Program-made: the position numbers and the translations under genes
The notes under the pieces: model-generated
The model's input: only the letters and a program-made list of their open reading frames with translations
Told to the model about the DNA's origin: nothing
Databases searched by the model: none
Assembly (NCBI GenBank): GCA_035048495.1
Contig: CM068545.1
Coordinates: forward strand, 43,518,450 to 43,582,449
Direction of reading: 5' to 3'
DNA length: 64,000 nucleotides
Source: Euptelea pleiosperma
Taxonomy: Eukaryota; Streptophyta; Magnoliopsida; Ranunculales; Eupteleaceae
Shown here: piece by piece, positions 1,677 to 41,074 of the stretch
Numbering within the stretch: position 1 is the first letter of the stretch
Layout of the letters: every line of letters begins with the position of its first letter

Positions 1677-1739
1677 ATCAATATCCCATTCCTTTCTGCT
1701 ATCAAGCAAATCCCCTCCTATGCCAAATTCCTCAAGGAC

Positions 1740-4700
1740 TTGTGCACAGTTAAGCGGCGTACGCATGTACCCAAAGCTGCCTTCTTGGCCGAAAAAGCTA
1801 CCGCGTTCATTCAACGCAATAGTGTGATCAAACACAAGGATCCAGGTAGCCCAACTGTCCAATGTGAAATTAGTGACAACTTTAGCTGCACTGCCTTGCT
1901 AGATTTAGGGGCTAGCGTTAACCTCATACCGTTCTCGGTATATCAGCAGTTAGGACTGAAAGATATGAAGCCTACCAATGTCACCCTGAAATTGGCTGAT
2001 CAGTCCATCAAGATTCCAAGAGGAATCATTGAAGATGTCCTAGTAAAAGTCGCTGACTTTTATTATCCTGTGGACTTTATCATTCTTGACACAGAGCCGT
2101 GTCAGGATAACTGCATTCCGGTCATCTTAGGCCGTCCATTCCTTGCCACCGCGAACGCACACATCGGCTGCCGGGACGGAAACATGTCCATTGCTTTCGG
2201 AAACCTCAAAGCTGAGGTCAATATCTTTCGTTTAATGCAACAAGATGCCGATCGCGACGTGACCGATGAAATGTGTGCAGTTGAGAGTCTAATCCCGGAC
2301 TCCACCGAAGATATTCTTCAGCAGTGTCTAGAACACTTTGGAGCTGACTTTGCAACAGAGTCAGCTATTTCTGATCTCAATGATCTTTTGGAGACTGCTC
2401 CACTGATAGAGATCCCCGCTCCACTCATCGAGTTCGAGCCTCTGATAACCATGGCCAGAGAACCCATCCTTCCTTTACCTACTGAAGTCAAACCTCTTCA
2501 ATCTGTGTCTTCTGTGACACCTATTTCTACTCCATCTGCTCAAATATTGGAGCTTAAGCCTCTTCCCACAGATCTTTCCTATGCCTATCTTGGTCCTAAG
2601 GAAACCTACCCTGTCATTCTTGCTTCCGCTTTGTCTGAGAGTGAACGTAAAAAACTTCTCGAGCTGCTCAACGAGCACAAATCTGCGATAGGTTGGACTA
2701 TAGATGATATTCGAGGCATAGACCCCTCGGTGTGCCAACATCACATCTATCTCGAGGATGAATCCAAAACCTCTCGAGAACACCAGAGGAGGTTGAACCC
2801 CGTCTTGAAGGATGTAGTCCGGGATGAGGTCCTTAAACTGTTAGATGCGGGTATCATTTATCCCATCTCCGATAGCAAATGGGTGAGTCCTATTCATGTC
2901 GTCCCTAAAAAGGCAGGATTCACAGTTGTGGAAAATGAGATCAAGGAAATGGTAACCCAGCGCCTGAAGAAAGGGTGGAGAGTCTGCATCGATTACCGAC
3001 GACTCAACACCAACACTAGGAAGGACCATTTTCCTTTACCCTTCATAGACCAAATGTTGGAGAGATTAGCAGGTCACTCCTATTACTGCTTCCTCGATGG
3101 TTACTCAGGGTATAATCAAATACCAATCGCCCCTGAGGATCACGAGAAGACAACCTTCACTTGTCCCTTTGGCACTTTTGCCTACAAGCGCATGCCCTTT
3201 GGCCTCTGCAATGCACCCGCGACCTTTCAAAGGTGTATGATGAGCATATTCTCTGACATGGTGGAAAAATTCCTCGAAGTCTTTATGGACGACTTCTCAG
3301 TCTTTGGGTCATCCTTTGATGACTGTCTGAACCATCTAGGGCTTGTACTTCAACGCTGTCAGGACAAGCGACTTGTCCTCAATTGGGAGAAATGCCACTT
3401 CATGGTGAAGAAGGGCATTGTTCTGGGACATATCATTTCCCATCAGGGCATTGAGGTCGACAAAGCTAAAATTGATATCATCTCGACCTTGCCCATTCCT
3501 AAGTTCGTACGTGACATCCGGTCCTTTTTGGGACACGGAGGATTCTATAGGCGATTCATCAAGGACTTCTCTCAAATCGCTCGACCTCTGTCTAATCTTC
3601 TGGCTAAAGATAGTCCTTTCGACTTTAATGCTGACTGTGTCAAGGCATTTGAGCGTCTCAAATCTGAGCTCACTACTGCACCCATTATCCGTCCCCCGGA
3701 TTGGACTCTACCTTTCGAGGTAATGTGCGATGCTTCTGACTACGCGTTAGGCGCTGTTCTAGGGCAGAGAGTTGACAAAAGATCACACGTGATCTACTAC
3801 GCGAGCAAAACTCTTAACTCTGCCCAAATGAATTACTCTACCACTGAGAAAGAACTCCTGGCGGTAGTCTTCGCCCTTGATAAATTCCGTCAGTACCTCT
3901 TAGCCACTAAGGTGGTTGTGTACACTGATCATGCAGCCCTTCGTTATCTCATGTCAAAAAAGGAAACCAAACCTCGATTAATTCGATGGATTCTCTTACT
4001 GCAGGAATTCGACCTCGAGATTAAGGATAAGAAAGGAACTGAGAATGTAGTGGCTGATCACTTGTCTAGACTGACTTTAGAGTCATCCTTCGACAGCCAG
4101 CCCATCCCTGAAACCTTTCCAGACGAACAACTGTTCGCCATCTCTGTTAATCCTTGGTATGCTGACATTGTCAACTACCTTGTCACCGAAGAAATGCCTT
4201 CACACTGGTCAAAACAGGACAAAAGCCAATTCCTAGCAAGAGTTAAGTACTACTCTTGGGATGACCCTTATTTGTATAAATACTGTCCTGACCAGATCAT
4301 TCGTCTCTGTGTCCCTGAATCGGACCAACTCAATATCTTGTCTTCATGTCATGACCAACCTTGTGGTGGTCATTTCAGCACTAAGAAGACTGCAGAAAAA
4401 GTGCTGCAATGCGGATTCTACTGGCCCACATTATTTAAAGATGCCCACATCTACAGCAAAACCTGTCCTAATTGTCAGCATCTAGGCCGCATCTCCCAGA
4501 GGAACATGATGCCCCTCACTCCCATCCAGGTCGATGAAATATTTGACATCTGGGGCATCGACTTCATGGGCCCCTTTCCCATTTCCTATGGTTTTGAGTA
4601 CATTCTCCTTGCGGTAGACTATGTCTCCAAATGGATAGAAGCCATTCCCACCAAGACCAATGACCACAAAGTGGTGGTCAAATTCCTAAAGGAGTTCATC

Positions 4701-5453
4701 TTCGCTCGATTCGGTGCCCCTAAGGCCATCATTAGTGATGGGGGCACCCATTTCTGCAATAAGATATTCGAGAACTTAATGAAAAAGTATGGGGTAACCC
4801 ACAAGGTTGCCCTAGCTTATCATCCGCAGACTAGTGGTCAAGTGGAGGTTTCTAATCGTCAGATCAAGCAGATCTTGGAGAAGACAGTCAATACCACACG
4901 TAAAGACTGGTCTACTCGTCTCACTGATGCTTTATGGGCATACAGAACCGCCTACAAGACCCCACTCAATATGTCTCCCTATCGTCTAGTCTTTGGGAAA
5001 CCCTGTCATCTTCCGGTAGAGATTGAACATCGTGCCCTGTGGGCCATTAAGAAGCTCAACTTCGACCTAGACTCCGCAGGGGAGGAGCGGAAACTTCAAA
5101 TGAATGAGTTAGAAGAACTCAGAAATGATGCCTACAACTTGTCCAAGAATTACAAAGCCAAAATGAAGTGGATACATGACAAGAGCATCCTCAGGAAAGA
5201 GTTCCATCCAGGACAGAAGGTCCTTCTTTATAATTCTCGTCTCCATCTCTTCCCTGGGAAACTGAAATCTAGGTGGACCGGTCCTTATACGGTCACCGCA
5301 GTCACACCCTTTGGGGCAATCACTATTGAGGATCCCAAGGATCACTCCTCTTTTCAGGTCAATGGGAAGCGTCTAAAACAGTTCCATGAACTTGACGTAT
5401 TGTTCATTCAGACTTTTGAGATCGATCTCATCGATCCTGCCTATGTCGACTGA
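1740..5453 (+). CDS. pol: pol polyprotein: protease, reverse transcriptase, RNase H, integrase
   Basis: Open for 1237 codons from the first Met; the true polyprotein continues upstream in frame through the stop at 1676. Protease: LLDLGASVN with Asp at residue 55 (nt 1902) and ILGRPFL at about 130-135. [15 protein letters not shown] (379-391), LDGYSGY (452-458) and the catalytic FMDD box (515-518). RNase [10 protein letters not shown] (663-671), TEKE (702-705), YTDH (728-731) and ADH (772-774). Integrase: a zinc-binding H871-x6-H878-x30-C909-x2-C912, then D941, D1000 and E1036 with 35 residues between the last two, then an RWTGPY box (about 1178-1183). No chromodomain follows, which with the overall wording fits the Athila lineage. 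All catalytic residues are present. Expression as a full polyprotein is blocked by the gag stop codons. Confidence 0.96.
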
Positions 5454-7370: not shown

Positions 7371-8261
7371 TGATATTCGCTCAAAAGTGCTTATTTTAAG
7401 CAATTATCCTTTTAGCATTATTGCAGTCTCCTACGTTAAAATACTCTATTTATCTACTTTTCTACGTAAGAGTCTCTTTTGTTGCGTAGAACACACTTTT
7501 CTGGACGAAATGGTATATTTGCATGCATTAAACACATTTTCGAAAGTCTAGGTATGAGACGTTATGATTGAGACTCATTACGCGTTTTTCACTATTGCAG
7601 GAAACCAAATCGGATGATTCTTGAAAATTGCGAACCAACGAGCTGACTGGTCCGTGAAACAAGATAAAGATGACTGTAGGGAGTTCCATGCAAATAATGA
7701 AGATGGTGTTGCACGTGAGTTCCAAGGATCCAATCAAGAAATTTCCCAAGACCTGGGAAGCATTGGTCGAGTCAGGAGACCACGGGCCATAGGGTGACCA
7801 AGTCAATGGCTAGCTAGATCATGAAGAGACAAACATGGTTCAAACAAAGATGATCAAAGAGATTGATTCAAGATGAGGGGTCACGGTTTTAAAAATACAT
7901 GGAAAGTTGGCCTGTGAACATGATAAGAAAGGTCAGATGGTTCTGACTGTCTGATTGAGTTGAACAGCTAGATAGTGTCGAATCAGGGACAAGACGGAGC
8001 TAGATGCATGGACCAATGATTATTGTTAGAAAATTGGTCTAAACAATTCCCAAAATGGTGGTTGCATTTGCAATAAACCACCACATGTGTGGCAAAGATT
8101 TAGCAAGCGTGTTCCATTCCAGAGAAGTAGGAAAGAGAGTAGTTTGGCTAACAAGAAGTGATGACATGTGAGGTGGCAGCATGTAGCATGCTATGGACCA
8201 TCACATGGGATAATATCTTGCCTAATTGAGAAGAGGGCTGTAGCATTGTCCACCAAATAGT

Positions 8262-8430
8262 GACTATCCTCCCTTGGAAGTTTTGATAAGGTGAATCTCG
8301 CCTTATTGGGGAGAGTTAAGTTGGACCAAGAAAGGAAAAGTAGAGGACTATCTTCCCTTGGAAGTTTTGATAAGGTGCATCTCACCTTATGGGGGAGAGG
8401 GCAAGTTGGACCAAGAAGGGAAAAGTAGGG
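8262..8430 (+). repeat. 84-bp tandem duplication in U3 of A
   Basis: Two units begin at 8262 and 8346 and differ at only a few positions. Each contains an inverted repeat: ATAAGGTG-N5-CGCCTTAT (8286-8306, one wobble pair) and ATAAGGTG-N5-CACCTTAT (8370-8390, perfect). The units end about 35 bp before the TATA box, so they may act as promoter or enhancer elements. Confidence 0.8.
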
Positions 8431-8463
8431 ACCAAACCCTAATGAGGATGGTCTTATCCTTAA

Positions 8464-8469
8464 TATAAA
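8464..8469 (+). promoter_or_regulatory. TATA box of the A LTR
   Basis: TATAAA within a purine-rich context, followed by a GA-rich stretch. Transcription would be expected to begin near 8495, which places the U3/R border there. Confidence 0.6.
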
Positions 8470-10370
8470 GAGAAAAGAAAGAGGAGAAGAAGGGGGCGCT
8501 CTTCATTCTTGACGTTCTCTCTTCATCTCTCCCGCCATGCTCTTCTTCCCCAAGCCGTTACAGCCCCTCTTCACTATCAATCGATCCATCTCCAAGACTG
8601 CCCAGTAACTTCTTCACGTTGCTGCCCTTTGCACGATCTTCAGTGTTGCCATCCTTCTCCTCAACCTGCATGCACATCTCCGTTTTCATTGGTGAAACCA
8701 GCAACACGCTGCTGCAACGCCAACCGTTCCAACACTCTCCACCCACCTCTTGACCTCCCTTCCTCATCTCTCCATCATCCAGTATTGCAACCCATCTCCA
8801 GCCCCTCAAAGAAAACAAAAAAAAAAAAGAAAAATTTTTTTTTTTTCAAGATCACCGGAGTTGCAGGTTGCAACTCCGGCAACCTCCATTAACTCCGGCC
8901 ACCTGTTGCTGATCACCTACCTCTTCCCCCTCTCGCTAGCAACCACCACGAAGCTGCTCCTCTTGCCATTTTTCTCCACCGATCCCCCCTGCATCTTCAT
9001 CTTCTCTACCATTATCTCACCGTGCTCCTCATCAAAAAACCAGAAAAAAAAAAGAAAGAGAAAAAGAAAGGAAAGAGAGAAGAGAAGAGAAGAGAGGAGG
9101 AGAGGACTCCTACCTGCTGGAGTGCAAGCCCAGCTCGCCCCCCCCCTTCATCATTGTTGCTGCCACTGCCAGCACCGCCTGCACCAGCCACCGCCCCCAC
9201 ACCCCGTCTCTCTAACGTGCTGGAGTTGCAACCTGCAACTCCAGTCCGTTGAAGGAGAAGGGGAAGCCGTCAACCCCACTTGATCTCCTCCATACTCCCC
9301 ATCTTCTCCTCTCCATTAAAGCTTCCGAGTTGCACGCCTGCAACTCGAATCCACACATGCAACACCTCATTTGCAGGCTGATCCTCCGGTAAGCACCACC
9401 ATCTCGAGCAAGTTGTTGTTGGACGTCCTACAATCCACGCCGGAAATGAGCTCTTCCTGCCACTGCACCTCCACGCTCTCCTCCATTGCCTGCACCTGAG
9501 CAAAATGTTACACATGCAACACTTTTGAGCCGCTGCTCCCTTCCATCACGCTCCACCTTGCTTTGGCTGAACCACCACCACCAAGTGCAACGCCTCGCAC
9601 ACCAGCAACCACCAAGGGTTCTGACTCTTGATGGCTCCTTCCACGGTCTCAACTCCATCATGGCCGACCTACTACAAGTCCAAATCTGATCTCCTCCGTC
9701 GATGCCAAAATCCGATAAGTCCTATGGTAATACTCTCCTCTCTAAACTCAATCACTCAATTCTCTCTCTAAGCCTTTCCACTTTCTCTCTCTAGAATAGA
9801 CCTCCTCTTTCTCTACCTTTCTCTCTCTATCTCCCTTCTATTTCATGCTTTCTAGTTAATTTTTGAAATTTATTTATGCACCAATCAGATTCAAGATTAT
9901 TGTAAGTTACTTTTCATTTTAATAAAGATGGTTAATTTCTTTAGTTTTGCTTATTATATTATGTCCTTCCTATTTTCTCTCTCATCATTTTAGCAGATAA
10001 TGGTTCCCTCTAAAATTTATAAAATCAATCATATTTTAATCCCGTGATCATCATTCTCACCCTTCAATCTCTTCTTTTTAGCAATTTTTGAGAAAAACCC
10101 GTCATTTTATGTCCTTGATTTGCATGAACTAATCCCGAGTGCGGATCGACATCCGACACGAGCCACTGTACAACCCTGTGAAATTTTACAGGATTTGAGT
10201 GAAAATCTCGGATAATATACAAATGTGTTGATTCTAGGGTTTCCGTAACCAACGACGCGGAAAAATCCTACTTTCAGTGGTCCAAGAGGAGCTCGCCGGA
10301 AAAGATGAACCAGTCCGGCGAGCTTCAAGATGAAGAAGAAGTAGAGCAAGAAGAGGAGGAGTAAGGGAAG

Positions 10371-10616
10371 GAGAAGAAGAAGAAGAAGAAGAAGAAGAAG
10401 AAGAAGAAGAAGAAGAAGAAGACCAGTCCGCCGGAGTAGTGGCGAGGATGATGACCGGAGTTGCAGGTTTTGCAACTCCGGTGGAAGGCGTGGGAGGAGG
10501 ACGTTCAACAGGTGCGGTGGAGGAGGAGAAGAAGAAGAAGAAGAAGAAGAAGAAGAAAAAGAGGAAGAAGAAGAAGAAGAAGAAGAAGAAGAAGAAGAAG
10601 AAGAAGAAGAAGAAGA
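10371..10616. repeat. GAA-repeat tracts in the B 3' LTR
   Basis: Nearly pure GAA runs cover 10371-10422 and about 10527-10616, separated by a unique spacer with the family inverted repeat. Similar tracts occur at 15166-15212, 22997-23117, 39621-39660, 52734-52796 and 56210-56265, and as TTC at 32839-32899 and 33011-33088. The long Lys/Arg/Glu or Ser/Leu/Phe reading frames over these tracts are not genes. Confidence 0.95.
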
Positions 10617-11070
10617 GAGGAAGAGGGCGCACCGACTCGCCGGAGGAACCCCCGGACGAGAAGAAGAAGTGGAAGGAAGGAGATAGAAGGGGGAAAGAGG
10701 GAGAGAGACCAAAAAGGAGAGAGGTCTCAGGGTTTTCAACCCTTCTTCTCAAGGATAAACCGTGGGTTTCTCCACTTGGAAACTCACGGTTTCTAAAAAT
10801 ATTTTTTTTTATTATTATTTTTTTTTTATTTTTTATTTGTATATTTGAACTTGCGGGCTTGGGCTCGAGGTTTATGGGCCGTTTGGCCATAAGGCTGATT
10901 GATTATTAGGCCGAGAGATGACGCCACGAGTCGGCCAGTGGTTGGCCAATGGGAACGCTAAAAATCGTGGGCCCAGAGTGCATCGGCCATGGGCCAGAAG
11001 GTAGGTGAGAAGGATAGTGGGCCACTGGGCTCGATGGATGTGGGTTAGGGTGTGTTTGGTTGCCAGGGAA

Positions 11071-11121
11071 GAAAAATGCATTTTCCCCTTGAAATACCCA
11101 TCAAGGAAAAATGTATTTTCC
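11071..11121. repeat. Long imperfect hairpin in U3 version I
   Basis: Arms at 11071-11092 and 11101-11121 pair over about 20 bp around the 8-nt loop aataccca. The same structure is found in the other version I LTRs, near 23571-23621 and 32312-32362. It lies directly beside a tgtgtttggttgcc motif like those at the ends of many plant MITEs, so it may be a captured MITE remnant. Confidence 0.55.
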
Positions 11122-11987
11122 TTTCTTCGGAAATCGAGCTCTACGCTCTCAGCCACAATCAATCATCTGAGGCATTTCTCTACAATCAAACCTACACTAG
11201 GGACTGATATTTTACAATGGAGATCGGGTGGTTGATAGGATGGATGATCGACTGATTGGTAGCACGATCGGATGGTCGGATGCATAGAATTGATAGATCA
11301 GATGGCGATCTATAGAGATCCAACGGCCTGATGGAAGATCCAACGGTCAGAAAGCTAAGGGAGATGAGACAGAGCCAATGGGCAGGAGTTCTGGGGTTAA
11401 GTCAATAAATTCGAGGACTGAGAGATGAAGAGAGAGAGAATAAAGAGAGATGAGAGAGAAAAATCAGAAAAAGTATTGGCAGAGGGTCATGAACCCTGGT
11501 TTTCCATTGTTCTTCACTTGAGCTTGGCCAGTAGAGCAGGCCATCATTTGATGTGGCTTTAAATGCTTTGGTCCTTCTCTTGGTTATTAGCTCTCCCGCT
11601 CTCGTGGTTCCTTGGGCCAGCTCTTCGATCCCCTTGTTCAGCCCATAATAGGCTCATATCTTCTAGACATAGCCTGTGGACTCTTTAAGCTTTGATAATG
11701 GGCTTTCATGATCCATGTGGGCCCACAAGTCTCGAGAATCATCCAATCAGGGTTTCCTGCGACAGACGAAGCGCGTAATGAGACTTAATCAGAACGGCTT
11801 AATATCTAAACTTCTAAAAAATGTGTTTAATGCATGCAAATATACCATTTCGTCCAGAAAAGTGTGTTCTACGCAATGAGATAGACTCTTAGGTAAAAAA
11901 GTGGATAATTAGAGCAGTTTTACGTAGGAGAGTACGATAATGCTAAAAGGATAATTGCTTAAAATAAGCACTTTTGAGCGAATATCA

Positions 11988-13696
11988 CAACCCCCAACCA
12001 GCATATTGCCAATCCTTGGCAATTAGTGCGAAATAAATGAGCTTAAAAGGGCTCTGCACATGCTGCACACTTTTTCATATTAGCTCAGGGAAAACACCAT
12101 TCGTCAAATCATTGAATGGATGCAAAAATAGTTACATGCTAGCGAAGAGTTGGAGAGTTTTGGCAAGACTACAGACTGATGACCCAGAATAGTCAGACTC
12201 TGCGTGTGTGTGTGCTCAACATTCTCATCATCCGACAGTAAAGATTTCCAGATCACCTCTAAGTTTTTATGCCTCGACCTCAAATCTCGCATGTTTAGCA
12301 CTCAGAATAGAATCACACATGAAGGGTTTTCTTCTTTTCTCTCAATTTATATTTGAGGAGATGTGTTGATATATGAAAGCAAAGATCTCACATATGTATT
12401 ATTTAAAGGAAGGACATCTTTAACAGAAGAAGATCTCATGATTGGAATACCACTTCACTCGGGAACGTTAGATCAAACTCTATAGCTTCTCCTTCTCCAA
12501 TCTCCACATTTTATGATCGTGCTATCCTAGAATCAAGTAGGACTTTCCTGGGTTGTAATGAGGCTTAGGTCAGGTGTAGAAAAATAAAGGTATACAGGAT
12601 TTCAAAGATCTTGAGAGGATATCTCTATTTTCTTGTATTTTTCCTGCGGCGTAATACCATTATCTGGTTCTTTTTTCTTTTTTCGTATTTTTCTCTTTTT
12701 CTTGATATTTCTGAGACTGCTCAATTTCTTTTCAGCTCTTCTTCATACTTTCTTTCCATATTTTGTTTTCAGCTTGAACCACTTTCTTTTCCTTTTGATT
12801 TTTTTCTTCTTTACTTTTCTTTTCACGGTCTACACATCAGTTATTCTTTTGTCCATCTCAAAATACGAGTAGCCAGTCATGCTTCGTAGCTAGACTGGGC
12901 TTTAGGTTGATGGGTTTACAAAGAAAATGCTTTTATAGAACGGCTCAAGGGGTTTCTAGTGAAGTATAATTCAGGTGAGTAAAAAGGCTGAATGGTTCAG
13001 AAAAATGGCCTAAATCATTTTCTAGGGTTTGCATTATCATGTATACTGTCTTGACTGGATACAGAGAAGGTTCTGTCGTAGTAATCCAATGTTGATGTCG
13101 TTCTGAGTTCCATGATCGAAGCAAAAGATAATGAGATCTCTCAGCGACTCTTGCGGGCAATGAAGAATAGTGAGTCATCCATTGACTCAGGATTATTGTA
13201 TAACTCTCTGAAATGATTAAAGGCTCGAAAGCTCGAAAGCTCACTGGGTTAGGTCTCCACAATTATTCTCACAGGATCTCTAGAGTTTCAAAACTTAGGA
13301 TGACTCTGATGTTGATAGTGTACAATTGTGCCAAATCTGAGTTTTTCTGAGTTTTCAAACCTGCTGTAGTCACGCCTGACTTGACTCGACACTAACTTTA
13401 AACAAAAATTGACATCCTCAATACTGACTTAACGGAGGTTTTCAGCTAATCAAAGTTAGGATATTTGACACATTTTTGAAATTCTAGAAAACTTTTGGAG
13501 AACATCGGAAATCACCCCAAAAACGAAATTTTTTTGTTTTGTTTTGTTTTGTTTTTTTTTTATTAAAATGAAGACATGAGTTTTGGTAAATACCCACCCC
13601 CAACCAAAATACAGCACCGTCCTCGGCGCTCATGACCGTGACATAAAATGATAAAAATTCAGTGATGATGATGCAAAAGTTCAGGAAGGATGTTAC
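11988..13696 (-). other. 3' non-coding region of B (LTR-proximal part)
   Basis: Reverse-strand counterpart of the A region 5700-7370, beginning with the G-rich tract (11988-11999). It contains purine-rich tracts (12620-12835 on this strand) and the second stem-loop near 13611. It has no coding frame. It is cut at 13697 by an insertion and resumes at 17401. Confidence 0.8.
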
Positions 13697-16600
13697 TGAA
13701 AGTAGGGTTTTTCCGCGTCGTTGGTTACGGAAACCCTAGAATCAACAAGATTTGTAATTTTTATCCGATTATCCTGCAAAATTGACAGATTTGTATAGGG
13801 ATTCGTGTCGGATGTCGATCCGCACTCGGGATTAGTCGGATTAGCGCAAATAAGAACATAAAATAATATGAAAATTGCCAGAATTCATGGGGAGATGAGA
13901 GTGGTGGAATTGCTTAAAATAATCAGAAAATGAACACCTTAATTAAAAATTCAAAGATTAACTCAATTCAATCTAATGTCATTACAACTTTTTTATCGAA
14001 AATGAAAAATAACAATTTAACAAGAACACTAGAAGAGAAATTAAGAGGATAGAGAAAAAGAAGAGAGAGTTAGAGAGAAAAAGTAGAGTGAGATGGTGAA
14101 TACCTAAAGATTCTAGAGAGAGAAATGGAGTTTTAGAGAGATATACCTAGAGAGATAAGAGAACTAGAGAGATCCTAGAGAGAGAATGGAGAGAGAGAGA
14201 ACAACTACCTTGATAATTATTGGAGTCCCCGGAGAGAATTGGCCATGGGAATGGTGAGAGGTGGTTCGGCCTTAATGGACATGGGTCCAAAAGAGGAAAG
14301 AGGAGGTGTACATCGCTTTGTTGCTGCACATGGGGTGTGGTTCACCCGGAATAGAAATCACGACCTCTTGAAGACGGCGGCTGGTGATGGTGGCAATGGA
14401 ACTTCCGGCGGCTATGGTGAGAATGGAGGTAGCAAGGACTCCTCCACGTTGGTGTGCACGTTGTTGAAAGCTGGTGGCTGACGGTGGTGGAAGGGAGCAG
14501 CAGCAAGGGGATCCTGCTGGTGCGTGGTTTCTATAGCCACGAGGTGAAGAAGACAGACCGACTGCCTGAGTTTCAGATCATGTTGCTCCCCAAAAAGAGA
14601 TGTATTTGCAGATCGTCTCCAAGAGAGAAGGTTCGAGATGTAGAAGAAGAGGACCGTGGGATCTGAACTGTGATGGAGAGGCAACACCGTCTGATTCAGC
14701 TTTTGGAAGTGGGAGAGCTATAGCTTAAACGGTGCTCAAGAAAGAGCAGCAAGTGGAGAACCTAATGCTCTCTTAAGCAGGTTGCTAGAGGAGGTTGGTG
14801 TGGAGAAATATCAACGTTAGGATCCAGGAGAGGGACATCCAAGGTGGTGATCGTTTGATGCAGGTAGCACACTTCTCGTTGCAGGTTACCAGTTTGCAAA
14901 CCGGTGGTGAAGATGATGTAGATCTGATCTGGCCGTGAGTTGCAGGAGGTGCAGCAGTAAGAAGAGACCACAATGATGATGGGGATGTTGTGTATTGTTA
15001 GTGCAAGGAAGAAAGGAGGGCAGCAGGCGGTATCAAGGAGGAGGGGAGCACTGACGGCCGGAGTTGCAGGTCTGCAACTCCGGCGTTGAGAAAACGTTAA
15101 TGACAAAAAAAACGAAAACGAAAACGAAAAAAAAATGAGAAGAAAAAGAAAAAGAAGAAGAAAAAGAAAAAGAAGAAGAAGAAGAAGAAGAAGAAGAAGA
15201 AGAAGGAGAAGGAGAAGGAGAAGGAGAAGGAGACGGATGCATTACCAGACGGCCGGAGTTGCAGGCAACTCCGGCGAAGAAGAAGAAGAAGATGAAGAAA
15301 AATGAGAAAGAGAAAAGAAGAAAAAGAAGAAGAATGGGGCCAAGGGTGAATGCGGGATTGATAGGGGGAGAGAAAGGAGAAGATTTGAGGGGGATTAGGG
15401 TTTGAACGAACCCTTCTCCCTCATCTTATAAAGCTCCCTATTTCCATTAATGGAAATAGGGTATTTTTTAAAAATAAAAAATAATTTTTTTTTTTTTTTT
15501 TTTTTAAGTAAAAACCTACTTTTCTATGGGGAATCTCCCCAATTAGTGGACCCCCCATTTAATTAAAATTATTTTTGAAATTCGCGGGGTCCACTAACTG
15601 GTCGGACAGCGGGTCGATGCTGATGGGCCTGGCTACTGGCCCACATGGACTGATGATGTCCATCGTCTCACAAGATGATGTGACAGGCATTCTGAAGGCG
15701 ATCGGATGGATGGTGACTTAATTGGGACCCAGATTGGTAGATCGACGGATCTAGAGAGATCCAACGGTCCGATTGAAGATCCAACGGTCCGATAGAAGAT
15801 CCAACGGTCAGAAAGCTAAGGGAGATGAGATAGAGCTGATAGGCAGGAGTTCTGGGGTTAGGTCAGTAGATTCGAGGATCGAGAGATGAAGAGAGAGAGA
15901 GAATAAGGAGAGATGAGAGAAAAAGTATCAAAAAAATGGAAAAAAGCACTGGCGGAGGGTCTGGAACCCTGGTCTTCACTGTGACCATCCTCACGCTTCT
16001 CCAGTAGAGTCGACCATCATTCTTTGCTGACTCATGTGGCTTTAAACGCTTTGGTCCGTCTCTTGGTCATTGGCTCTCCTACTCTCTTCGTTCTTTGGGC
16101 CGGCTTTTTGGTCCTCTTATTCAGCCCATATTTGGCCCATATCTTCTAGTTATAGCATGTGGGCTTGTTAAGCTTTGATAATGGGCTTTCATGATCGATT
16201 TGGGCCCACAAGTCTCGAAAATCGTCCCATCGGGGTTTCCTGCGACAGAAGAAGCGCGTAATGAGACTTTATCAGAACGGCTTAATATTTAGACTTCCGA
16301 AAATGTGTTTAATGCATGCAAATATACCATTTCGTCCAGAAAAGTGTGTTTTACGCAATGAGATAGACTCTTACGTAGAAAAATGGATAATTAGAGCAGT
16401 TTTACGTAGGAGAGTGCGATAACGCTAACAGGATAAGTGCTTAAAATAAGCACTTTTGAGCGAATATCACAACCCCCAACCAGCATATTGCCAATCCTTG
16501 GCAATTAGTGCGAAATACATGAGCTTAAAAGGGCTCTGCACATGCTGCACACTTTTTCATATTAGCTCAGGGAAAACCCCGTTCGTCAAATCATTGAATG

Positions 16601-17395
16601 GATGCAAAAACAGTTACATGCTAGCGAAGAGTTGGAAAGTTTTGGCAAGACTACAGACTGATAATCATGACCCAGAATAGTCAGACTCTGCGTGTGTGTG
16701 TGCTCAACGTTCTCATCATCCGACAGTAAAGATTTTCAGATCACCTCTAAGTTTTTATGCCTCGACCTCAAATCTCACATGTTTAGCACTCAGAATAGAA
16801 TCACACAAGAAGGGTTTTCTTCTTTTCTCTCAATTTATATGTGAGGAGATGTATTTAATATAAAGAGGCAAAAGATCTCACATATGTTTTATTTGAAGGA
16901 AGGACATCTTTAACAGAAGAAGATCTCATGATTGGAATACCACTTCACTCGGGAACGTCAGATCAAACTCTATAGCTTCTCTTTCTCCAATCTCCACATT
17001 TTATGATCGTACTATCCTAGAATCAAGTAGGACTTTCCTGGGTTGTAATGAGGCTTAGGTCAGGTGTAGAGAGATAAAGGAATACAGGATTTCAAAGATC
17101 TTGATAATGGGCTTTCATGATCGATTTGGGCCCACAAGTCTCAAAAATCATCCCATCGGGGTTTCCTGCGACAGAAGAAGCGCGTAATGAGACTTTATCA
17201 GAACGGCTTAATATTTAGACTTCCGAAAATGTGTTTAATGCATGCAAATATACCATTTCGTCCAGAAAAGTGTGTTTTACGCAATGAGATAGACTCTTAC
17301 GTAGAAAAGTGGATAATTAGAGTAGTTTTACGTAGGAGAGTGCGATAACGCTAACAGGATAAGTGCTTAAAATAAGCACTTTTGAGCGAATATTA
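13697..17395 (-). mobile_element. Deletion-derived mini-element: LTR head + 3' region + full LTR
   Basis: Flanked by a perfect 5-bp target duplication gttac (13692-13696, 17396-17400). Read on the minus strand it has the first ~294 bp of an LTR (17395-17102), then ~630 bp of the family 3' non-coding region (17101-16470), then a complete LTR of 2773 bp (16469-13697, U3 version II). The rest of the 5' LTR, primer site, leader and coding region are gone. The breakpoint at about 17101 shares 4 bp (ttga) between the two parents, suggesting microhomology-mediated deletion. The outer end has mutated from TCA to TTA. Confidence 0.88.
15436..15461. repeat. Perfect 26-bp palindrome next to the promoter, U3 version II
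   Basis: The half-site CCCTATTTCCATT is followed by its exact complement. On the minus strand it ends 2 bp before the stretch CTTTATAAG (15425-15433), the likely TATA box. Related near-palindromes occur at the same place in the other version II LTRs, near 39770, 52936 and 56374. Confidence 0.8.
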
Positions 17396-17663
17396 GTTAC
17401 CAAGTCGGCAGAAATTCGACAGTGTTTGGTACCTGATGATCGGGAGAATGAATGTACCTGCATTTTCAGAGATATAACAGTAATAACAAATGCATGAGAC
17501 TCATGTACTCTAGGAATATCGGAATTGCCTTTCCGAAAGCGCTAAGTTTTACGTCTTCAGCCAGACATGACGGGGGTATATCAAGTACCCCCAACCAGGT
17601 TAAAACTCATGGAGACTGAGTGAATCTGCAGTCTTCCTGACACCTAAGGTGGAAGGGAAACAA

Positions 17664-19430
17664 CTATCCTATCCCTTGTCTAGGTGTACCTGTGTAGAAC
17701 AGGTCTTTCTCAGTGTAGACTGAGAGAAGGGCATTGAGATCTCTGAGCAGACCGGCAAAAGTACGGAGTTGATATGGGAGGGATCGAAGCTTCTCAGTAA
17801 AGATTGAGAGGAGAGTAGTAGTGGGTTCTCTGACCATGGTTAGCAGAGCCGAAAACTCATTGAGTTTAGCGGGAATGTATCTGAATGGAGCAGACTCCTG
17901 CAGATCAGTAATACCAAAATTGTCTGACTCTGAGATGAAGTCAGACTCAAAGTGTTCTTGACACTTGGATAATTTATCCTCGAGAGAGTCCTGAATTAGA
18001 CTCTCAATGACATACGGTTCATCAACAACATCGACGTAGGGTGACGGGTGAAAACTGTTGACCTCTCCCTCGATGTTTCCTAATTTGATAGGGATGTTCC
18101 AATCCCTACATTCAATATGTTCATCCTCGGTGGGGAATGGTAGGTCTAGGACAGCTGGAATCTCATATTCTAGACACGGTTCTACGGTAGGAATGTCTGC
18201 ATCCAAGGCAGAGAAAGAATTATCAGAGATAGAGATGGAACCGGGTTTCTCTGGGCTCGGTCTAGAAGTTGGTGCTGTTAAGGGCACCAAAGATTGAGAC
18301 TCGGGTTCATCACAATTTTTGCACAATCCAAGGGAGGTGCGGAGGAACGGTAGATCTATGACAGCAGGGATCCTACGATCGAGACAAAACTCAGTGTCAT
18401 GATGATCATCTTTAGGGTCCAGGTTAGAAGCAGCAGTGGGAGAGTGAGAAATAGGTTGCTCTGAGGTAGGTTCAGGATGTGGTGCTTTTAAAGGCATCGA
18501 AGAAGGAAACACTGGCTCCTCAATAGTCTGGCTCGATCTAGGGGTGGGTACAACTTCTATTTCTTCCTTGCAATGCTGGTACTGGGTCCAATTGTGCGGC
18601 TCCTCATTATAGACAGTGGCCATGTCATTCTCCTCAGGATAGGCTATTGGTGGGCTAGTGAAGTTGACTTCCTCTCTTTCATTTTCTAATTGAACTAGAC
18701 GTTGCTCCAAGCTCTCCATAGATTGCTGTTGTTGGTGCTCTAGACTTTGGAAATACTGTTGTTGCTGGGCAATGTATTGAGAGAGAAGATCCTCTAGACA
18801 GGGTTTAGTAGCCAACGGAGGCGGTTCAGCCAAGGGGAGCTGAGGTGCCAACTCTTGATTGTAGTCCGACTGGGTATGAAAGTTATAAGGCAAAGTGGAG
18901 TCTGGGACTAGTTGCTGACTCTGAAAATCCTGAGGGGCCCACTGTTGATCAGAATAATCATTTTGTGGATATGATGGGTATTGGGATTGCGAGTGTTGCC
19001 AGTCATACTCTCCATTGGGTTGATGGAACCCGTAAGGATAATTATCCTGCGACAGTTGTTGCGGGATAGCAGACTGTTCCCAACCAAAGTTATTGTGACT
19101 CCTATTATCCGGATAATAAGTGTTGTCATAGGAGGTCTGCATTGGAGATGGAAATGTACAAACATCTTGCTGGATAGGAGGGTAATATCCTACAGAGTGG
19201 GAATGGTACACGGGTTGCTGGACTGCGGCACGAAGGGCAGAGACTGAATTTTTAAGTTCTTGGAGTACAGAATTGTACTCCGGATCTCGGTGATTATCAT
19301 ACCCTGTAGAAGTGTGCGAGACTGGAGTATCATGATGATACGCAGAATTGTCATACCATTGTTGAGAGTGATCACCTCGATTCTCATAGAAACTGTAGTA
19401 GGTCTCATACAGAGGCCGTTCATCTGCCAT
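17664..19430 (-). CDS. Gag-tail/protease-tail protein of non-autonomous element B
   Basis: 588 residues, intact. Residues ~50-260 align with the C-terminal half of the A gag: QELKNSVSAL, Tyr/Gln/Pro-rich stretches, LAPQLPLA, then a Gln-rich coiled-coil-like segment (213-254). The capsid region and the zinc knuckle are absent. Residues ~349-370 and ~419-459 both resemble the protease segment after the active site (around CRDGN and ILGRPFL in A), so this piece is present twice; the catalytic Asp motif DLGAS is missing. Residues ~470-540 match the protease-RT linker of A. The end has a short repeated motif (L-S-x-F/Y-T-E-K). There is no RT, RNase H or integrase. Function is unknown; it may bind the Gag particle or RNA. 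The start ATG is the first in this frame, just after the leader. Confidence 0.85.
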   Translation of the reverse strand: MADERPLYETYYSFYENRGDHSQQWYDNSAYHHDTPVSHTSTGYDNHRDPEYNSVLQELKNSVSALRAAVQQPVYHSHSVGYYPPIQQDVCTFPSPMQTSYDNTYYPDNRSHNNFGWEQSAIPQQLSQDNYPYGFHQPNGEYDWQHSQSQYPSYPQNDYSDQQWAPQDFQSQQLVPDSTLPYNFHTQSDYNQELAPQLPLAEPPPLATKPCLEDLLSQYIAQQQQYFQSLEHQQQQSMESLEQRLVQLENEREEVNFTSPPIAYPEENDMATVYNEEPHNWTQYQHCKEEIEVVPTPRSSQTIEEPVFPSSMPLKAPHPEPTSEQPISHSPTAASNLDPKDDHHDTEFCLDRRIPAVIDLPFLRTSLGLCKNCDEPESQSLVPLTAPTSRPSPEKPGSISISDNSFSALDADIPTVEPCLEYEIPAVLDLPFPTEDEHIECRDWNIPIKLGNIEGEVNSFHPSPYVDVVDEPYVIESLIQDSLEDKLSKCQEHFESDFISESDNFGITDLQESAPFRYIPAKLNEFSALLTMVREPTTTLLSIFTEKLRSLPYQLRTFAGLLRDLNALLSVYTEKDLFYTGTPRQGIG

Positions 19431-21248
19431 TAGAGGCGATAGAGGGATGCGGTGGACTAACTCTCAGATCGAGTCAGTAAAAGGTTAGGACAGGTCCAAC
19501 CGGGCTTCTACTTGAAAAACCAAGCCCAAGATTTGGCAAAAATTTGCCAAAAGGAGACACTGGAGTAGTGATTCTAAATGATGCACACGAAGCACAGATA
19601 ATCCTATTCTAAACAATCAGGATATATTTTAGGCATTATCTTGTTAGTTTTGGGGCTAGAGTAGATTATGACAATGGGCGGACCACTGGTTTATTTTTTA
19701 GCCGTCGGACTAACTGTATGCACTCAGAGGTTCTCACCAGGTTACACTCTTCAGAGCGAATCCTTTAGTACTAACTCTAGTCAACAACAAGGCAATCCAA
19801 AGCCTAGACAGACATGCGGCACAATGGCTGTCTTAAGTACGTCCCAGACTAACCGGATTGGTCAAGTGTATAAGAAGAGTGTTCCCTCGGGTTAAGCTAG
19901 GGTTGGTGTGTGTTCCTATTCCACACGCAACTAACCGCCGAATAGTCCAAGATGCCACGTCGAGCTCAATGTACTTGAGTAGCAGGGACTTATGGGTGTG
20001 TTAGACAACAGGGACCCGCGCTCGTGGTCTTATTTCGATTGGATGTTAAGCGGGTTCGCTTTGTGTGGATTTTTCCTCGAACACCGGGCTAATTGGCTCT
20101 ACTTCTTGATTCTTTTTAGTATAGATGGATCCTGGGGATCAATTTCAGCTGGAGTGATGATGTGGGTGATGAAATCCCACCAATTTCAATTTTTGGAGCT
20201 GGGTTTGCTCTCTTAGAGTTGATTGATTAACGGCCACGCCACGCAAGTCAAAGAATATGGATGCGAAAGCAAATAGACAAGCGGCAATGATTCACCCAAT
20301 AACACCGTATCGCACTCAAGGCGACGATAGGGACTTACCTCCCGTGGGACTTACCTCCCGTGGGCCACACCACGGGGTCGCCTCCGTGGGTTAGAGAGGG
20401 GTATCCTAATGGGCTTGGGCCCGACTCCACCTCTTTGAGCTTTCGCTCTCTACCCACACTGGATCGTGTTCGTGCAGAAAAGTTAGATCGCACGGTCTAG
20501 GTATTTGGGATTCTATTTGGAAGATCCTTGCCTTTTTAGGGTTCACAGAACAAGCACTGGATTTAGGCAAGTTTTTGAATTAGTTTCCAAATTCGAGATG
20601 GGTTAAAATTTAAGAATTCCCAGATTTGGAAAATACCTAGATTGGAATGTTTTCCGAACTGTGGAGATCTTCCAAGAAAGATTTGATTGCGGGATCCCTT
20701 ACAATTTTGGAAAATTTCCCAAAATTGAAATTCTATTAGATTTGGGGTGTTTCCTTTTGCATACTTTTCCAAATTCGGAAGATTTCTAAAGATAGAAATT
20801 CTTCTAAAGAGGAAACTTCTAAAAGGGGAAACCCTAATTTAGCAAAGTTTCAAGATTTTAGAATCTTTCCAAAAATCGCAAATCCTTGATTGGTGATTTC
20901 TAAAAATCTGCAGAATATAAAACCCTAATTTTTTTGAATTTTGATTTTTTAATTTTTTTTGTAATTTCCACTTAATCTAGGGTTTCTAAAAAAACCCTAG
21001 AACAAGATCTAGCAGTTATTTGGAAAGCAGTTAAAATTCCTAAATTATTACAACTTTGCACTCGGCCTTCCGAGGCATTAAAAATAGTAATTTAAAAACT
21101 GCTAAAAATCACTAAAAACCAAAAATAGAAAGTTTTTCAAAAAGGTCAGGCTGTCCAAATTGAGCAGCTTTTCACTTCAGCAACTTTCCAATTCTGTCTT
21201 TACGTCCTTTTTCGCACTCCCGAACACCCGAGCGGCAGCGGCGCCATT
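19431..21248 (-). other. 5' leader of B
   Basis: Runs from the primer site to the start codon and is clearly homologous to the leader of the gag-pol element C (41075-42720) and of D. The last part before the ATG differs between the two element types. It contains an AT-rich stretch of short complementary motifs (ggaaa / tttcc, about 20560-21000), and a duplicated GTAAGT splice-donor motif at 20333-20338 and 20349-20354. Confidence 0.8.
21229..21246 (-). promoter_or_regulatory. Primer binding site of B
   Basis: On the minus strand TGGCGCCGCTGCCGCTCG begins two bases after the LTR end. The first 13 bases resemble the tRNA-Asp-type primer site known from Athila elements (TGGCGCCGTTGCC), with one difference. 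Confidence 0.8.
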
Positions 21249-24200
21249 TGAAAATAGGGTTTTCCCGCGTCGTTGGTTACGGAAACCCTAGAATCAACAA
21301 GATTTGTAATTTTTATCCGATTATCCTGCAAAATTGACAGATTTGTATAGGGATTCGTGTCGGATGTCGATCCGCACTCGGGATTAGTCGGATTAGCGCG
21401 AATAAAAACAAAAACTGACGGACCATCATAAGAAATAATAGATAAAAACAAACTTCATAATTCAGTGATCAAAATGTTTTATTACAATGCTTGAATCGAA
21501 AATAACATAAAATAAGATAAACTAAAAAGTAATTTTAAGGAAGAAAATTCTAGAGAGAGTTAGAGAGAGAAAATAAAGTGGAGAGAGAAAGTTAGAGAGA
21601 GATCTCTAGAGGGAGAAAAAGAGATCTAGAGAGAATTATGTAGAGAGAGAACCTCCTAAAAAACTAGAGAGAGAAACAAGAGATAGGGAGAGAAAGATAG
21701 AAAGAGAATCTAAAGAGGAGGAGAGAGAAAATAAAAAAGAAGAGAGAGAAAGTTACCGCTTACCCACCATGAGGAATGATCGAGTAGATCCAACAATTTG
21801 GGGAGATGCAGGTCAACCTATTGGTGGTAGCAGTTCCTTGTTGGTTGTCCAATCAACAACGCATGTTGTAAGAGGAGCCCGACTTGTGAGAGGGCAGTAG
21901 GCGGTAGAAGGATGGTTCGATCCTTCCTACCTTCTCTTCTTCTTCTTCTATTCTTTTTTTTTTTTTTTTTTTTTCTTTTGCCTTGCTGTTTTTCTTTTTC
22001 TTTTCGACCAGGAGGTTGCCGGAGATGCTGTGGTGGAACGGCTAGAGGAGCAGGGTGCTTTGGCACTTGATGGGGAGTGGTTTTTCAAGCTGAGATGGAG
22101 GTATGCTATGGCAGGTCAGCAAGGGAGGTAGAAACCGGTGGTGGAGCCACCTACAACAGTGTTGATTTCCTCTCCTCTCTTCTATCCTTCCTTTTTTTTT
22201 TTTTTGTTGAAGAAGCAGGCAAAGGAGAAAAGATGGACGCCGGCAAAGTGGTGTGGGCGGTGATGGATGGAGAAGGAGGCGCTGACTGTTGGTGGCGCTC
22301 GGGCTCGTGGGTGTGGTGTCCAACAGATGTTGGGAAGACGTGGGCAGCAGCCTGGAATGATGAAGTGGGTGGACCGGTGGTGGTTCTGGTGTGGATGACT
22401 TGCTGCTGGAGATGAAGAACGGCCGGAGGAGAGAGCCTTGGGGCGAGATGGTGATGATGCACAACACAGGAGAGGACACAGGCTGGGAAGAGGAGATGTC
22501 CACAGTGGTTACTGGGATGTGCTCTGGAGGCGTGTAGACACCAGAGTTGCTGAGCATCAATAGAGATGAGTGTGCTTCACGGTGAGGAGTTGTTGTTGGT
22601 GGGAACGGTGGTGTGCAGGTACTCACGGTGATGAGAAGTTGCAGACCTGCCGGAGTTGCAGGTCTGCCCGAAACAGTGGTGGACGGAATGGTTGATGGAG
22701 GGGATACCGCTGGTTGTTGGAGAAAATGGAGGAGTTGCAGGCGTTAATGGTGGTGAGAAGAAGAACCAGTCCGGCAGGTGAAGGATGACGGTGGTGGAAG
22801 TGAACGGTGCAGGCGGTGCTAGTGGTGCTGCTCGCCTTTGCAGACGTAGGAAGAGAGAAGAATAGACAAAGAAGAACGGAGGGAGACAGAGAAGATGGAG
22901 GTGGTCCAAGAGGAGCTCGCCGGAAAAGATGAACCAGTCCGGCGAGCTTCAAGATGAAGAAGAAGTAGAGCAAGAAGAGGAGGAGTAAGGGAAGGAGAAG
23001 AAGAAGAAGAAGAAGAAGAAGAAGAAGAAGAAAAAGAGGAAGAAGAAGAAGAAGAAGAAGAAGAAAAAGAGGAAGAAGAAGAAGAAGAAGAAGAAGAAGA
23101 AGAAGAAGAAGAAGAGAGGAAGAGGGCGCACCGACTCGCCGGAGGAACCCCCGGACGAGAAGAAGAAGTGGAAGGAAGGAGAAAGAAGGGGGAAAGAGGG
23201 AGAGAGACCAAAAAGGAGAGAGGTCTCAGGGTTTTCAACCCTTCTTCTCAAGGAGAAACCGTGGGTTTCTCCACTTGGAAACTCACGGTTTCTAAAAATA
23301 TTTTTTTTTATTATTATTATTTTTTTTATTTTTTATTTGTATATTTGAACTTGTGGGCTTGGGCTCGAGGTTTATGGGCCGTTTGGCCATAAGGCTGATT
23401 GATTACTAGGCCGAGAGATGACGCCACGAGTCGGCCAGTGGTTGGCCAATGGGAACGCTAAAAATCGTGGGCCCAGAGTGCATCGGCCATGGGCCAGAAG
23501 GTAGGTGAGAAGGATAGTGGGCCACTGGGCTCGATGGATGTGGGTTAGGGTGTGTTTGGTTGCCAGGGGAGAAAAATGCATTTTCCCCTTGAAATACCCA
23601 TCAAGGAAAAATGTATTTTCCTTTCTTCGGAAATCGAGCTCTACGCTCTCAGCCACAATTAATCATCTGAGGCATTTCTCTACAATCAAACCTGCCCTAG
23701 GGACTGATATTATACAATGGAGATCGGGTGGTTGATAGGATGGATGATCGACTGATCGGTAGCACGATCGGATGGTCGGATGCATAGAATTGATAGATCA
23801 GATGGCGATCTATAGAGATCCAACGGCCCGATGGAAGATCCAACGATCAGAAAGCTAAGGGAGATGAGACAGAGCCAATGGGCAGGAGTTCTGGGGTTAA
23901 GTCAATAGATTCGAGGACCGAGAGATGAAGAGAGAGAGAATAAAGAGAGATGAGAGAGAAAAATCAGAAAAAGTATTGGCAGAGGGTCATGAACCCTGGT
24001 TTTCCATTGTTCTTCACTTGAGCTTCGCCAGTAGAGCAGGCCATCATTTGATGTGGCTTTAAATGCTTTGGTCCTTCTCTTGGTTATCAGCTCTCCCGCT
24101 CTCGTGGTTCCTTGGGCCAGCTCTTCGATCCCCTTGTTCAGCCCGTAATAGGCTTATATCTTTTAGACATAGCCTGTGGACTCTTTAAGCTTTGATAATG

Positions 24201-24487
24201 GGCTTTCATGATCCATGTGGGCCCACAAGTCTCGAGAATCATCCAATCAGGGTTTCCTGCGACAGAAGAAGAGCATAATGAGACTTAATCAAAATGGCTT
24301 AATATCTAAACTTCTAAAAAATGTGTTTAATGCATGTAAATATACCATTTCGTCTAGAAAAGTGTGTTCTACGCAATGAGATAGACTCTTACGTAAAAAA
24401 GTGGATAATTAGAGCAGTTTTACGTAGGAGAGTGTGATAATGCTAAAAGGATAATTGCTTAAAATAAGCACTTTTGAGCGAATATCA
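21249..24487 (-). repeat. 5' LTR of B (U3 version I)
   Basis: 3239 bp, TG...CA ends. It includes a GA-rich block (21540-21760), a variant inverted repeat with arms at 22641-22650 and 22658-22667, a long GAA tract (22997-23117), a hairpin at about 23571-23621, and the common 250-bp U3 head ending at 24487. It is followed by caagg (24488-24492), the expected target duplication. Confidence 0.92.
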
Positions 24488-41056: not shown

Positions 41057-41074
41057 TGGCGTCGCTGCCGCTCG
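41057..41074 (+). promoter_or_regulatory. Primer binding site of C
   Basis: TGGCGTCGCTGCCGCTCG begins two bases after the LTR end. It matches the site of B except for one C-to-T change. Confidence 0.8.

What the first reader, a model, noticed from the sequence alone, without database searches (positions are those of the whole stretch)
17664..19430. Non-autonomous Athila-like lineage keeping a chimeric gag-tail/protease-tail protein
Seen: B and D share LTR, primer site, leader and 3' region with gag-pol elements A and C. They encode instead one frame joining the gag C-terminal half to sequence from after the protease active site, with no zinc knuckle, catalytic Asp or enzymes. Known: non-autonomous LTR elements that keep a gag frame have been described in plants, but a protein built from gag tail plus a duplicated, dead protease tail is not one I know. 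Inference: it may be selected for particle assembly, RNA binding or interference, and the elements move using A/C-type enzymes.
Basis: partly seen in the sequence, partly recalled or inferred. Interest (0 to 1): 0.85.

Follow-up and report, generated by a model that had tools for sequence, protein, structure and literature searches.

The report
Capsid-less partner of plant retrotransposons
A plant genome carries many copies of a mobile element that has lost its enzymes but still keeps one gene, a remodelled leftover of the particle protein with no recognisable shell-forming part, and the front half of that gene is still under selection, which suggests that this hitch-hiking element gains something from it.

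Summary
B (10277-24487, minus strand, with a nested insertion) and D belong to a high-copy non-autonomous Athila-like family in a 613-Mb plant genome. It shares leader, primer site and 3' region (94-95%) with gag-pol elements but carries a frame whose synonymous divergence from A's gag-pol is saturated. The frame lacks the capsid domain, zinc knuckle and protease active site. It retains the gag tail, the protease end and the linker to RT. Of 33 copies read end to end (31 genomic, B, D), 28 have lengths divisible by three and 12 are fully open. Shared variants give omega 0.38-0.39 in codons 1-300 but 0.96-0.98 beyond. Shared indels are in frame 6 of 6, against 7 of 43 in noncoding. L019 has an open frame, LTRs without substitutions and a target duplication. 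So the gag-tail half is kept by selection; the protease tail is only kept open. Non-autonomous partners with a selected ORF are known; a capsid-less one is a new variant. Its role is inferred.

The parts
17664..19430 (-). B: chimeric ORF, 588 codons (gag tail without capsid core or zinc knuckle; a protease-end motif twice; protease-RT linker; C-terminal repeat region)
19431..21248 (-). B: leader between primer site and ORF, 88.8% identical to the leader of gag-pol element C; similarity falls off about 90 nt upstream of the ORF
21233..21246 (-). B: primer binding site TGGCGCCGCTGCCG (tRNA-Asp type, by comparison with Diaspora/Calypso)
   Evidence: literature passage
21249..24487 (-). B: 5' LTR, TG...CA
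17396..17663 (-). B: first part of the 3' region; matches A from its pol stop onward, beginning about 30 nt behind B's stop
13697..17395 (-). Separate element nested in B's 3' region, internally deleted, target duplication GTAAC (minus strand) at 13692-13696 and 17396-17400
11988..13696 (-). B: rest of 3' region ending in polypurine tract TTGGGGGTTG; 94.0% to A, 94.1% to D
10277..11987 (-). B: 3' LTR, cut by A; 97.4% to the 5' LTR over about 1,468 nt
59388..61220 (-). D: collinear chimeric ORF, two in-frame stops, no frameshift
57429..63016 (-). D: internal region (primer site 63003-63016, one mismatch); no LTR sequence follows beyond 63016
54846..57428 (-). D: 3' LTR
34729..35778 (-). G: third, more diverged remnant of the same type (ORF end and 3' region), continued at 30582-31436 beyond a solo LTR
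3..5453 (+). A: gag-pol frame (capsid, zinc knuckle, protease, RT, RNase H, integrase) with three in-frame stops in the gag/pre-protease part; 5' end lies outside the window
7371..10276 (+). A: 3' LTR, lying in B's 3' LTR
41057..51304 (+). C: second gag-pol element, damaged (primer site 41057, one mismatch; unidentified insertion 46017-48944)

Best explanation
B-type elements are a long-lived, high-copy, non-autonomous branch of the Athila-like family in this plant. Shown: (a) their LTR starts and polypurine tract match A's, their primer sites match C's within one or two bases, and leader and 3' region are close to those of C and A, while their one gene is an old, diverged derivative of gag-pol without capsid core, zinc knuckle, protease active site or enzymes; (b) some copies inserted very recently; (c) in the mobile lineage the frame is kept open and codons 1-300 (gag tail) are under purifying selection, while the protease-derived part drifts but stays in frame. 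Inferred: reverse transcription and integration are done in trans by enzymes of gag-pol elements with the same ends; the gag-tail protein associates with the partner's Gag through the retained tail and favours its own RNA in those particles. The last step rests on this: selection among elements needs a benefit that falls mainly on the RNA that encodes the protein.
For: Family, not a one-off: 40 of 40 scored genome matches (B included) at 96-100% over 300/300 nt, out of 1720 first-look candidates; ORF end joined to the same 3' region in 20 of 20 and ORF start to the same leader in 18 of 20 large loci. Selection: variants shared by 3 or more of 27 copies, codons 1-300, omega 0.39 (0.21-0.70), p 0.0009; 0.38 (0.20-0.73), p 0.0021, in 26 copies without L009; stops among shared variants 1 seen, 10.0 expected (p 0.0023); shared indels in frame 6/6 vs 7/43 in noncoding (p 1.2e-4). 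B against D: 0 frameshifting gaps, 7.3 expected (P 7e-4; 0.003 on non-homopolymer gaps alone). Recent mobility: L019 open frame, LTR pieces without mismatches, target duplication AAGAT; L011 open, duplication CCCAT. Partner: 4 of 13 sampled gag-pol 3' ends carry a full-length U3 92-96% identical to D's; A's 3' region is 95.0% identical to D's, against 94.1% between B and D, although ORF dS between A and B is about 1.8; 40 of 40 scored RT matches are 99-100% identical to A.
Against: No expression, protein or particle evidence. Pairwise B-D omega is 0.90, not different from 1. Codons 301-end show no amino-acid constraint; codons 201-300, which hold the predicted helix, give 0.81, not significant. 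A direct Fisher test of singletons against shared variants is not significant (p 0.32 whole, 0.087 gag tail). Six spanned copies with frameshifts or many stops were left out of the codon test, which lowers stop counts. The structure model is poor (mean pLDDT 42). Copies were picked by similarity to B. A's LTR is of another type, and I did not check whether any gag-pol copy is intact.
Confidence: 0.6

Rival explanations
1. The protein is a trans-dominant restriction factor of Gag assembly, like Ty1 p22/p18 (C-terminal half of Gag), limiting copy number of the autonomous partner.
For: Similar anatomy: the C-terminal part of Gag made alone. [quoted passage not shown] B-type frames lack the capsid domain.
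Against: Ty1 p22/p18 contains capsid sequence (recalled); this protein has none recognisable. A factor that harms all copies equally is not kept by selection among elements that themselves need those particles (inference).
Confidence: 0.13
2. Only an open frame is selected, not the protein: a long translated frame protects the RNA from decay or helps its export, so the frame is kept and residues drift.
For: Codons 301-end: omega 0.96-0.98, while 6 of 6 shared indels of the ORF are in frame and shared stops are few; B-D omega 0.90.
Against: Codons 1-300 are constrained at amino-acid level (omega 0.38-0.39; 0.23 in 1-100 and in 101-200), and 38% identity to A's gag tail persists at saturated dS.
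Confidence: 0.15
3. Dead passenger: the frame is a remnant without function, amplified from a few master copies.
For: 21 of 33 copies are not fully open; second half unconstrained; the Fisher test is not significant.
Against: A neutral master-copy model predicts shared variants with omega 1 and stops and frameshifting indels at the neutral rate; shared variants depart from this in codons 1-300, in stops and in indels. Saturated dS against A speaks against a recent remnant.
Confidence: 0.05
4. Independent internal deletions of gag-pol that happen to look alike.
For: Internal deletions do occur here (nested element 13697-17395).
Against: The same diverged ORF with the same in-frame losses is found in B, D and the genomic copies read.
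Confidence: 0.01

Closest known systems
Non-autonomous Athila families of Arabidopsis (Marco & Marin 2008, PMC2410132; passages and section 8 read)
   Same: Athila lineage; pol-less families whose ORFs are under purifying selection and which multiplied for up to 2 My; recombination with autonomous families, hybrid ORFs.
   Different: Their ORFs are Gag, or Gag plus Env, in what I read; here no capsid domain is recognised and protease-end sequence is fused on.
RLG_Sabrina / RLG_WHAM with RLG_Wilma in wheat (PMC9744471; passages read)
   Same: High-copy non-autonomous gypsy elements that co-evolve with an autonomous partner; GAG-Pro ORF kept in some; [quoted passage not shown]
   Different: Another family; GAG and protease both present in the semi-autonomous forms; no gag-tail/protease-tail fusion in the passages read.
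RLG_Quinta / RLG_Cereba in wheat centromeres (PMC11302176; passages read)
   Same: Non-autonomous partner with conserved LTR parts and primer site but a GAG barely similar at DNA level; an extra domain of unknown function; Quinta lineages A and B have GAG genes about 65% identical in flanks over 90% identical.
   Different: Quinta keeps the GAG domain; centromeric CRM-type elements, not Athila (lineage name recalled).
TR-GAG elements (Chaparro et al. 2015, not held; described in PMC8704663, passages read)
   Same: LTRs plus one gag-derived ORF; a new insertion of one such element was seen in Arabidopsis ddm1.
   Different: TR-GAGs have the GAG domain; these frames do not.
Ty1 p22/p18 (PMC4599808, PMC8458377; starts of abstracts in a listing only)
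   Same: Protein from the C-terminal part of Gag without the rest.
   Different: Made from an internal transcript of an autonomous yeast element, inhibitory; contains capsid sequence (recalled).

Membership tests
Athila-like (Ty3/gypsy) lineage | Primer site complementary to tRNA-Asp just behind the 5' LTR | tested here: inconclusive
   TGGCGCCGCTGCCG at 21233-21246; 41057-41070 and 63003-63016 with one mismatch each; tRNA identity taken from a paper's passage, no host tRNA compared
Athila-like (Ty3/gypsy) lineage | Pol of the partner groups with Athila pol | tested here: inconclusive
   P0002 has protease, RT, RNase H, integrase; 7949 hits, best 120 listed, plant wherever an organism is named; no tree with named Athila references built
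Athila-like (Ty3/gypsy) lineage | B-type backbone shared with the gag-pol elements of the window | tested here: met
   leader 88.8-89.2% to C, 3' region 94-95% to A
TR-GAG | LTR element with a single ORF and no pol | tested here: met
   L019: one frame of 618 aa, the next longest between the LTRs 144 aa. The RT probe hit 1 of 20 large loci (L027, opposite strand, beyond a break in its 3' region) and the protease probe 2 of 20 (L027, L028), all outside the B-type internal region
TR-GAG | ORF carries a GAG (capsid) domain | tested here: not met
   PF03732 not listed up to E 1 in B, L010, L019; found in A and C
Semi-autonomous GAG-Pro element (Sabrina/WHAM type) | GAG plus protease domain | tested here: not met
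   no capsid domain in 3 frames tested; no D[STL]G motif in 13 stop-free copies
Non-autonomous partner with a selected ORF (Arabidopsis Athila type) | Purifying selection on the ORF in the mobile lineage | tested here: met
   codons 1-300 omega 0.39, 0.38; not met for codons 301-end (0.96-0.98)
Non-autonomous partner with a selected ORF (Arabidopsis Athila type) | Recent insertions | tested here: met
   L019: LTR pieces without mismatches, target duplication AAGAT
Ty1 p22-like restriction factor | Inhibits Gag particle assembly | not testable with these tools
   needs a biochemical assay

The most novel reading that the evidence does not exclude
Retrotransposon families can keep, for long periods and in very high copy, an accessory protein that has no enzyme and no capsid: a largely disordered gag-tail adaptor whose conserved job is to get its own RNA into particles built by another family. 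That would make it the counterpart of a satellite virus's packaging factor rather than of a Gag donor.
Probability: 0.3. Interest if true: 0.75.

Novelty: new variant of a known kind. Interest (0 to 1): 0.55.

Why it matters
Non-autonomous plant elements with an ORF are commonly read as Gag donors: they supply the bulk protein and borrow the enzymes. Here the protein has no recognisable shell-forming domain, yet its gag-tail half is conserved in a family with recent insertions. That separates 'supplying Gag' from 'having a selected gag-derived protein' and makes a specific question testable: does a free gag tail act on its own RNA, or on the partner's Gag? The contrast between a constrained first half and a drifting, frame-keeping second half says where to look.

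Tried and rejected
Homologues elsewhere: P0001 whole (7005 candidates, none at E 0.001 or better) and residues 290-599 (1916 candidates, none at E 10 or better), although the same database gave 7949 relatives of A's pol. Two limits: full gag-pol proteins lie outside the length range, and a relative as diverged as A is from B might be missed. 'Restricted to this plant' is not shown.

Structure: a single-sequence AlphaFold2 model has mean pLDDT 42, confident only around residues 221-250, with weaker C-terminal helices; too poor for a fold search, so none was run. Matches to alphavirus capsid in Pfam (E 0.13) and PDB (best E 0.044) were judged chance: low scores, one short stretch, under Pfam's cut-off.

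Pairwise B-D dN/dS: plain counting gave 0.61 (0.41-0.90), but with the observed mutation spectrum it is 0.90 and not significant. I do not use it as evidence; the family-wide shared-variant test replaced it.

Host species: not identified (contigs C1-C14 all appear in the hit lists; 613 Mb; best pol matches 68% over 98% of the query, or 71% over half of it).

Copies left out: of 37 fetched places, 31 were spanned end to end; L013, L018, L021, L027, L041, L045 were not. Of the 31, L012, L020, L022, L029, L034, L039 (frameshifted or rearranged) were left out of the codon test; the indel test used 32 sequences (31 less L012, plus B and D), against 13 leaders and 17 3' regions. Two tandem neighbours of the C2:26.07 Mb copy were not fetched. 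A search with a second ORF piece did not complete.

Full report
What is there. The window is a nest of LTR elements in a plant genome of 613 Mb (window = contig C6 43,518,450-43,582,449). LTRs start TGATATTCGCTC and end CTACTTTCA; ten starts and nine ends were found with up to three mismatches (one end, at 54572, is unassigned). From these, the primer sites and the self-comparison I ordered most of the nest. B lies on the minus strand: 5' LTR 21249-24487, primer site 21246-21233, leader, ORF 19430-17664, 3' region 17663-17396 continuing at 13696-11988, polypurine tract TTGGGGGTTG, 3' LTR from 11987 down to 10277, where element A begins. The stretch 13697-17395 is an insertion into B's 3' region with target duplication GTAAC on both sides. 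D has the same internal layout (63016-57429) and a 3' LTR at 57428-54846 but no 5' LTR. G is a more diverged remnant of the same type. A encodes capsid, zinc knuckle, protease, RT, RNase H and integrase with three in-frame stops; C has the capsid domain, matches A's protease, RT and integrase, and is interrupted.

The frame. B's ORF is homologous to A's gag from just behind the capsid core: 38% over residues 50-299 of P0001 (E 2e-47); and then to the end of the protease and the protease-RT linker: 46% over residues 420-551 (E 1e-27). The zinc knuckle falls in a gap of an otherwise collinear alignment, and the protease half with the catalytic Asp is missing. A 17-residue motif from the protease end occurs twice. 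The capsid domain scores 1e-21 and 1.9e-22 in C and A and is not listed up to E 1 for the three B-type frames tested.

Old ORF, young backbone. Between A and B the ORF's synonymous sites are saturated (dS about 1.8, dN 0.51 by simple counting). Yet the 3' region of A is 95.0% identical to D and 94.0% to B, while B and D are 94.1% identical to each other. The leader of C is 88.8-89.2% identical to those of B and D. Similarity to C's leader falls off about 90 nt before the ORF, and similarity to A resumes about 30 nt after the ORF's stop, at A's pol stop. The simplest reading, an inference, is repeated template switching between partners that exchange everything except the diverged gene. LTR types cross the autonomy line too. 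A's own LTR is of another type (58% over 613 nt against B). Of 13 sampled places downstream of RT matches, 9 showed a 3' region-LTR junction; 4 of these carry a full-length U3 92-96% identical to D's (82-84% to B's own), and the other 5 carry U3 of other types.

Copies. A 300-nt piece of B's ORF gave 1720 first-look candidates and 40 scored matches, all 96-100% identical over the full length. A piece of D's gave 1873 candidates (40 scored, 93-100%); the RT of A 1430 (40 scored, 99-100%) and of C 1572 (40 scored, 92-100%). First-look numbers are loose. I read 37 of the 39 places outside the window. In the 20 large loci the ORF end joins the same 3' region 20 times and the ORF start the same leader 18 times; L012 and L021 are rearranged there, and several ORFs are split by later insertions. 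Of 31 genomic copies read end to end, 26 have a length divisible by three and 11 are fully open; with B and D, 28 of 33 and 12 of 33.

Selection. For 27 copies I classed variants by the number of copies that carry them, and took the neutral expectation from the mutation spectrum of the leaders and 3' regions of the same family. Variants in three or more copies, which should mostly predate the last insertion: codons 1-300, 26 synonymous, 25 replacement, 1 stop, omega 0.39 (0.21-0.70), p 0.0009; codons 301-end, 29, 64 and 0, omega 0.98. Stops overall 1 against 10.0 expected (p 0.0023). Singletons: omega 0.85, not different from 1, stops 16 against 17.4. Leaving out L009, a segmental duplicate of B, gives 0.38 (0.20-0.73) and 0.96, and singletons of codons 1-300 then give 0.65 (p 0.025); under a uniform or the singleton spectrum the shared values are 0.26-0.38 against 0.73-0.93. 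Codons 1-100 and 101-200 are each 0.23; 201-300, which holds the predicted helix, is 0.81 and not significant. A direct Fisher comparison of singletons with shared variants is weaker and not significant (p 0.087 in the gag tail, 0.32 overall). Copies with frameshifts or more than three stops were not in this test, so stop counts are low for all classes. Indels shared by two or more copies: 6 of 6 divisible by three in the ORF, 7 of 43 in noncoding (p 1.2e-4); counting singletons too, 12 of 17 against 15 of 85. The two-copy test of B against D points the same way for the frame: no frameshift in 1746 nt against 7.3 expected after correcting for homopolymers (P 7e-4; 0.003 on the 15 non-homopolymer gaps alone), although its omega is 0.90.

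Recent movement. L019 has an open 618-codon frame; its LTR pieces match without a substitution (1488 and 711 nt at 100%, 884 nt with one gap) and the element is flanked by AAGAT on both sides. L011, also open, is flanked by CCCAT. Most other pairs compared differ more. No host clock was available, so I give no years.

How it may work. Shown: non-autonomous, recently mobile, gag-tail half under selection, backbone shared with gag-pol elements. Inferred: enzymes come in trans, because LTR starts and polypurine tract of B are identical to A's and the primer sites of B and C differ by one base; the protein benefits the RNA that makes it, because otherwise selection among elements would not keep it; association with Gag through the retained tail is the most economical way. 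A p22-like inhibitor is possible but harder to select for. The second half seems to need only to be open.

What is known. Arabidopsis Athila has pol-less families with selected Gag or Gag-Env frames (PMC2410132; passages and section 8 read). Wheat has semi-autonomous GAG-Pro elements, variants with unrelated ORFs, and one with a partial proteinase (PMC9744471, passages), and the Quinta/Cereba pair (PMC11302176, passages). Transposition of a TR-GAG has been seen (PMC8704663, passages). LTR swapping between autonomous and non-autonomous soybean elements is recalled, not read. The lists of searches (titles and abstract starts) show no capsid-less gag-tail/protease-tail family; I read passages of five papers only (the fifth PMC1142308), so this is weak evidence of absence.

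Limits. Copies were chosen by similarity to a piece of B; one genome; no expression data; recombination between copies blurs the shared/singleton division; no gag-pol copy was tested for intactness.

Noticed in passing
window 31437-34723 (+), 38035-40811 (-), 51305-53981 (-): Three apparent solo LTRs with flanking 5-bp duplications (AGTTC; AGATA; GTGAT/ATGAT with one difference), sitting in G, in C's 5' LTR and in C's pol end.
   Followed up: partly
window about 18 kb to 60 kb, and contig C6 about 44.59-44.64 Mb: B, C and D each have a 99% match about 1.0-1.1 Mb away in matching order but opposite orientation, with somewhat different spacing: probably an inverted segmental duplication of this nest. 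L009, B's match there, lacks the nested insertion, so I treat it as a duplicate and not an independent insertion.
   Followed up: partly
G000 C2 26.057-26.073 Mb; C11 31.275-31.302 Mb; C5 7.117-7.132 Mb; C3 32-44 kb: Regularly spaced matches (about 7.62, 8.8, 7.05 and 5.39 kb) suggest that pieces of these elements have become tandem arrays.
   Followed up: no
window about 14-16 kb, 22-24 kb, 38-40 kb: LTR interiors of minus-strand elements are strongly G- over C-skewed (0.35-0.39); the middle of the LTRs gives repeat-like multiple matches in some LTR pairs.
   Followed up: no
window 46017-48944: Insertion in C's gag-pol, AT-rich (GC 0.33 for 46001-48000); not identified.
   Followed up: no
ORF C-terminus (B residues about 540-575; D has 29 extra residues): A repeat like FTEKLxSLPxxLxxFxGLLR is gained and lost in frame (87 nt between B and D; 84- and 90-nt indels shared by 2, 3 and 7 copies).
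   Followed up: partly
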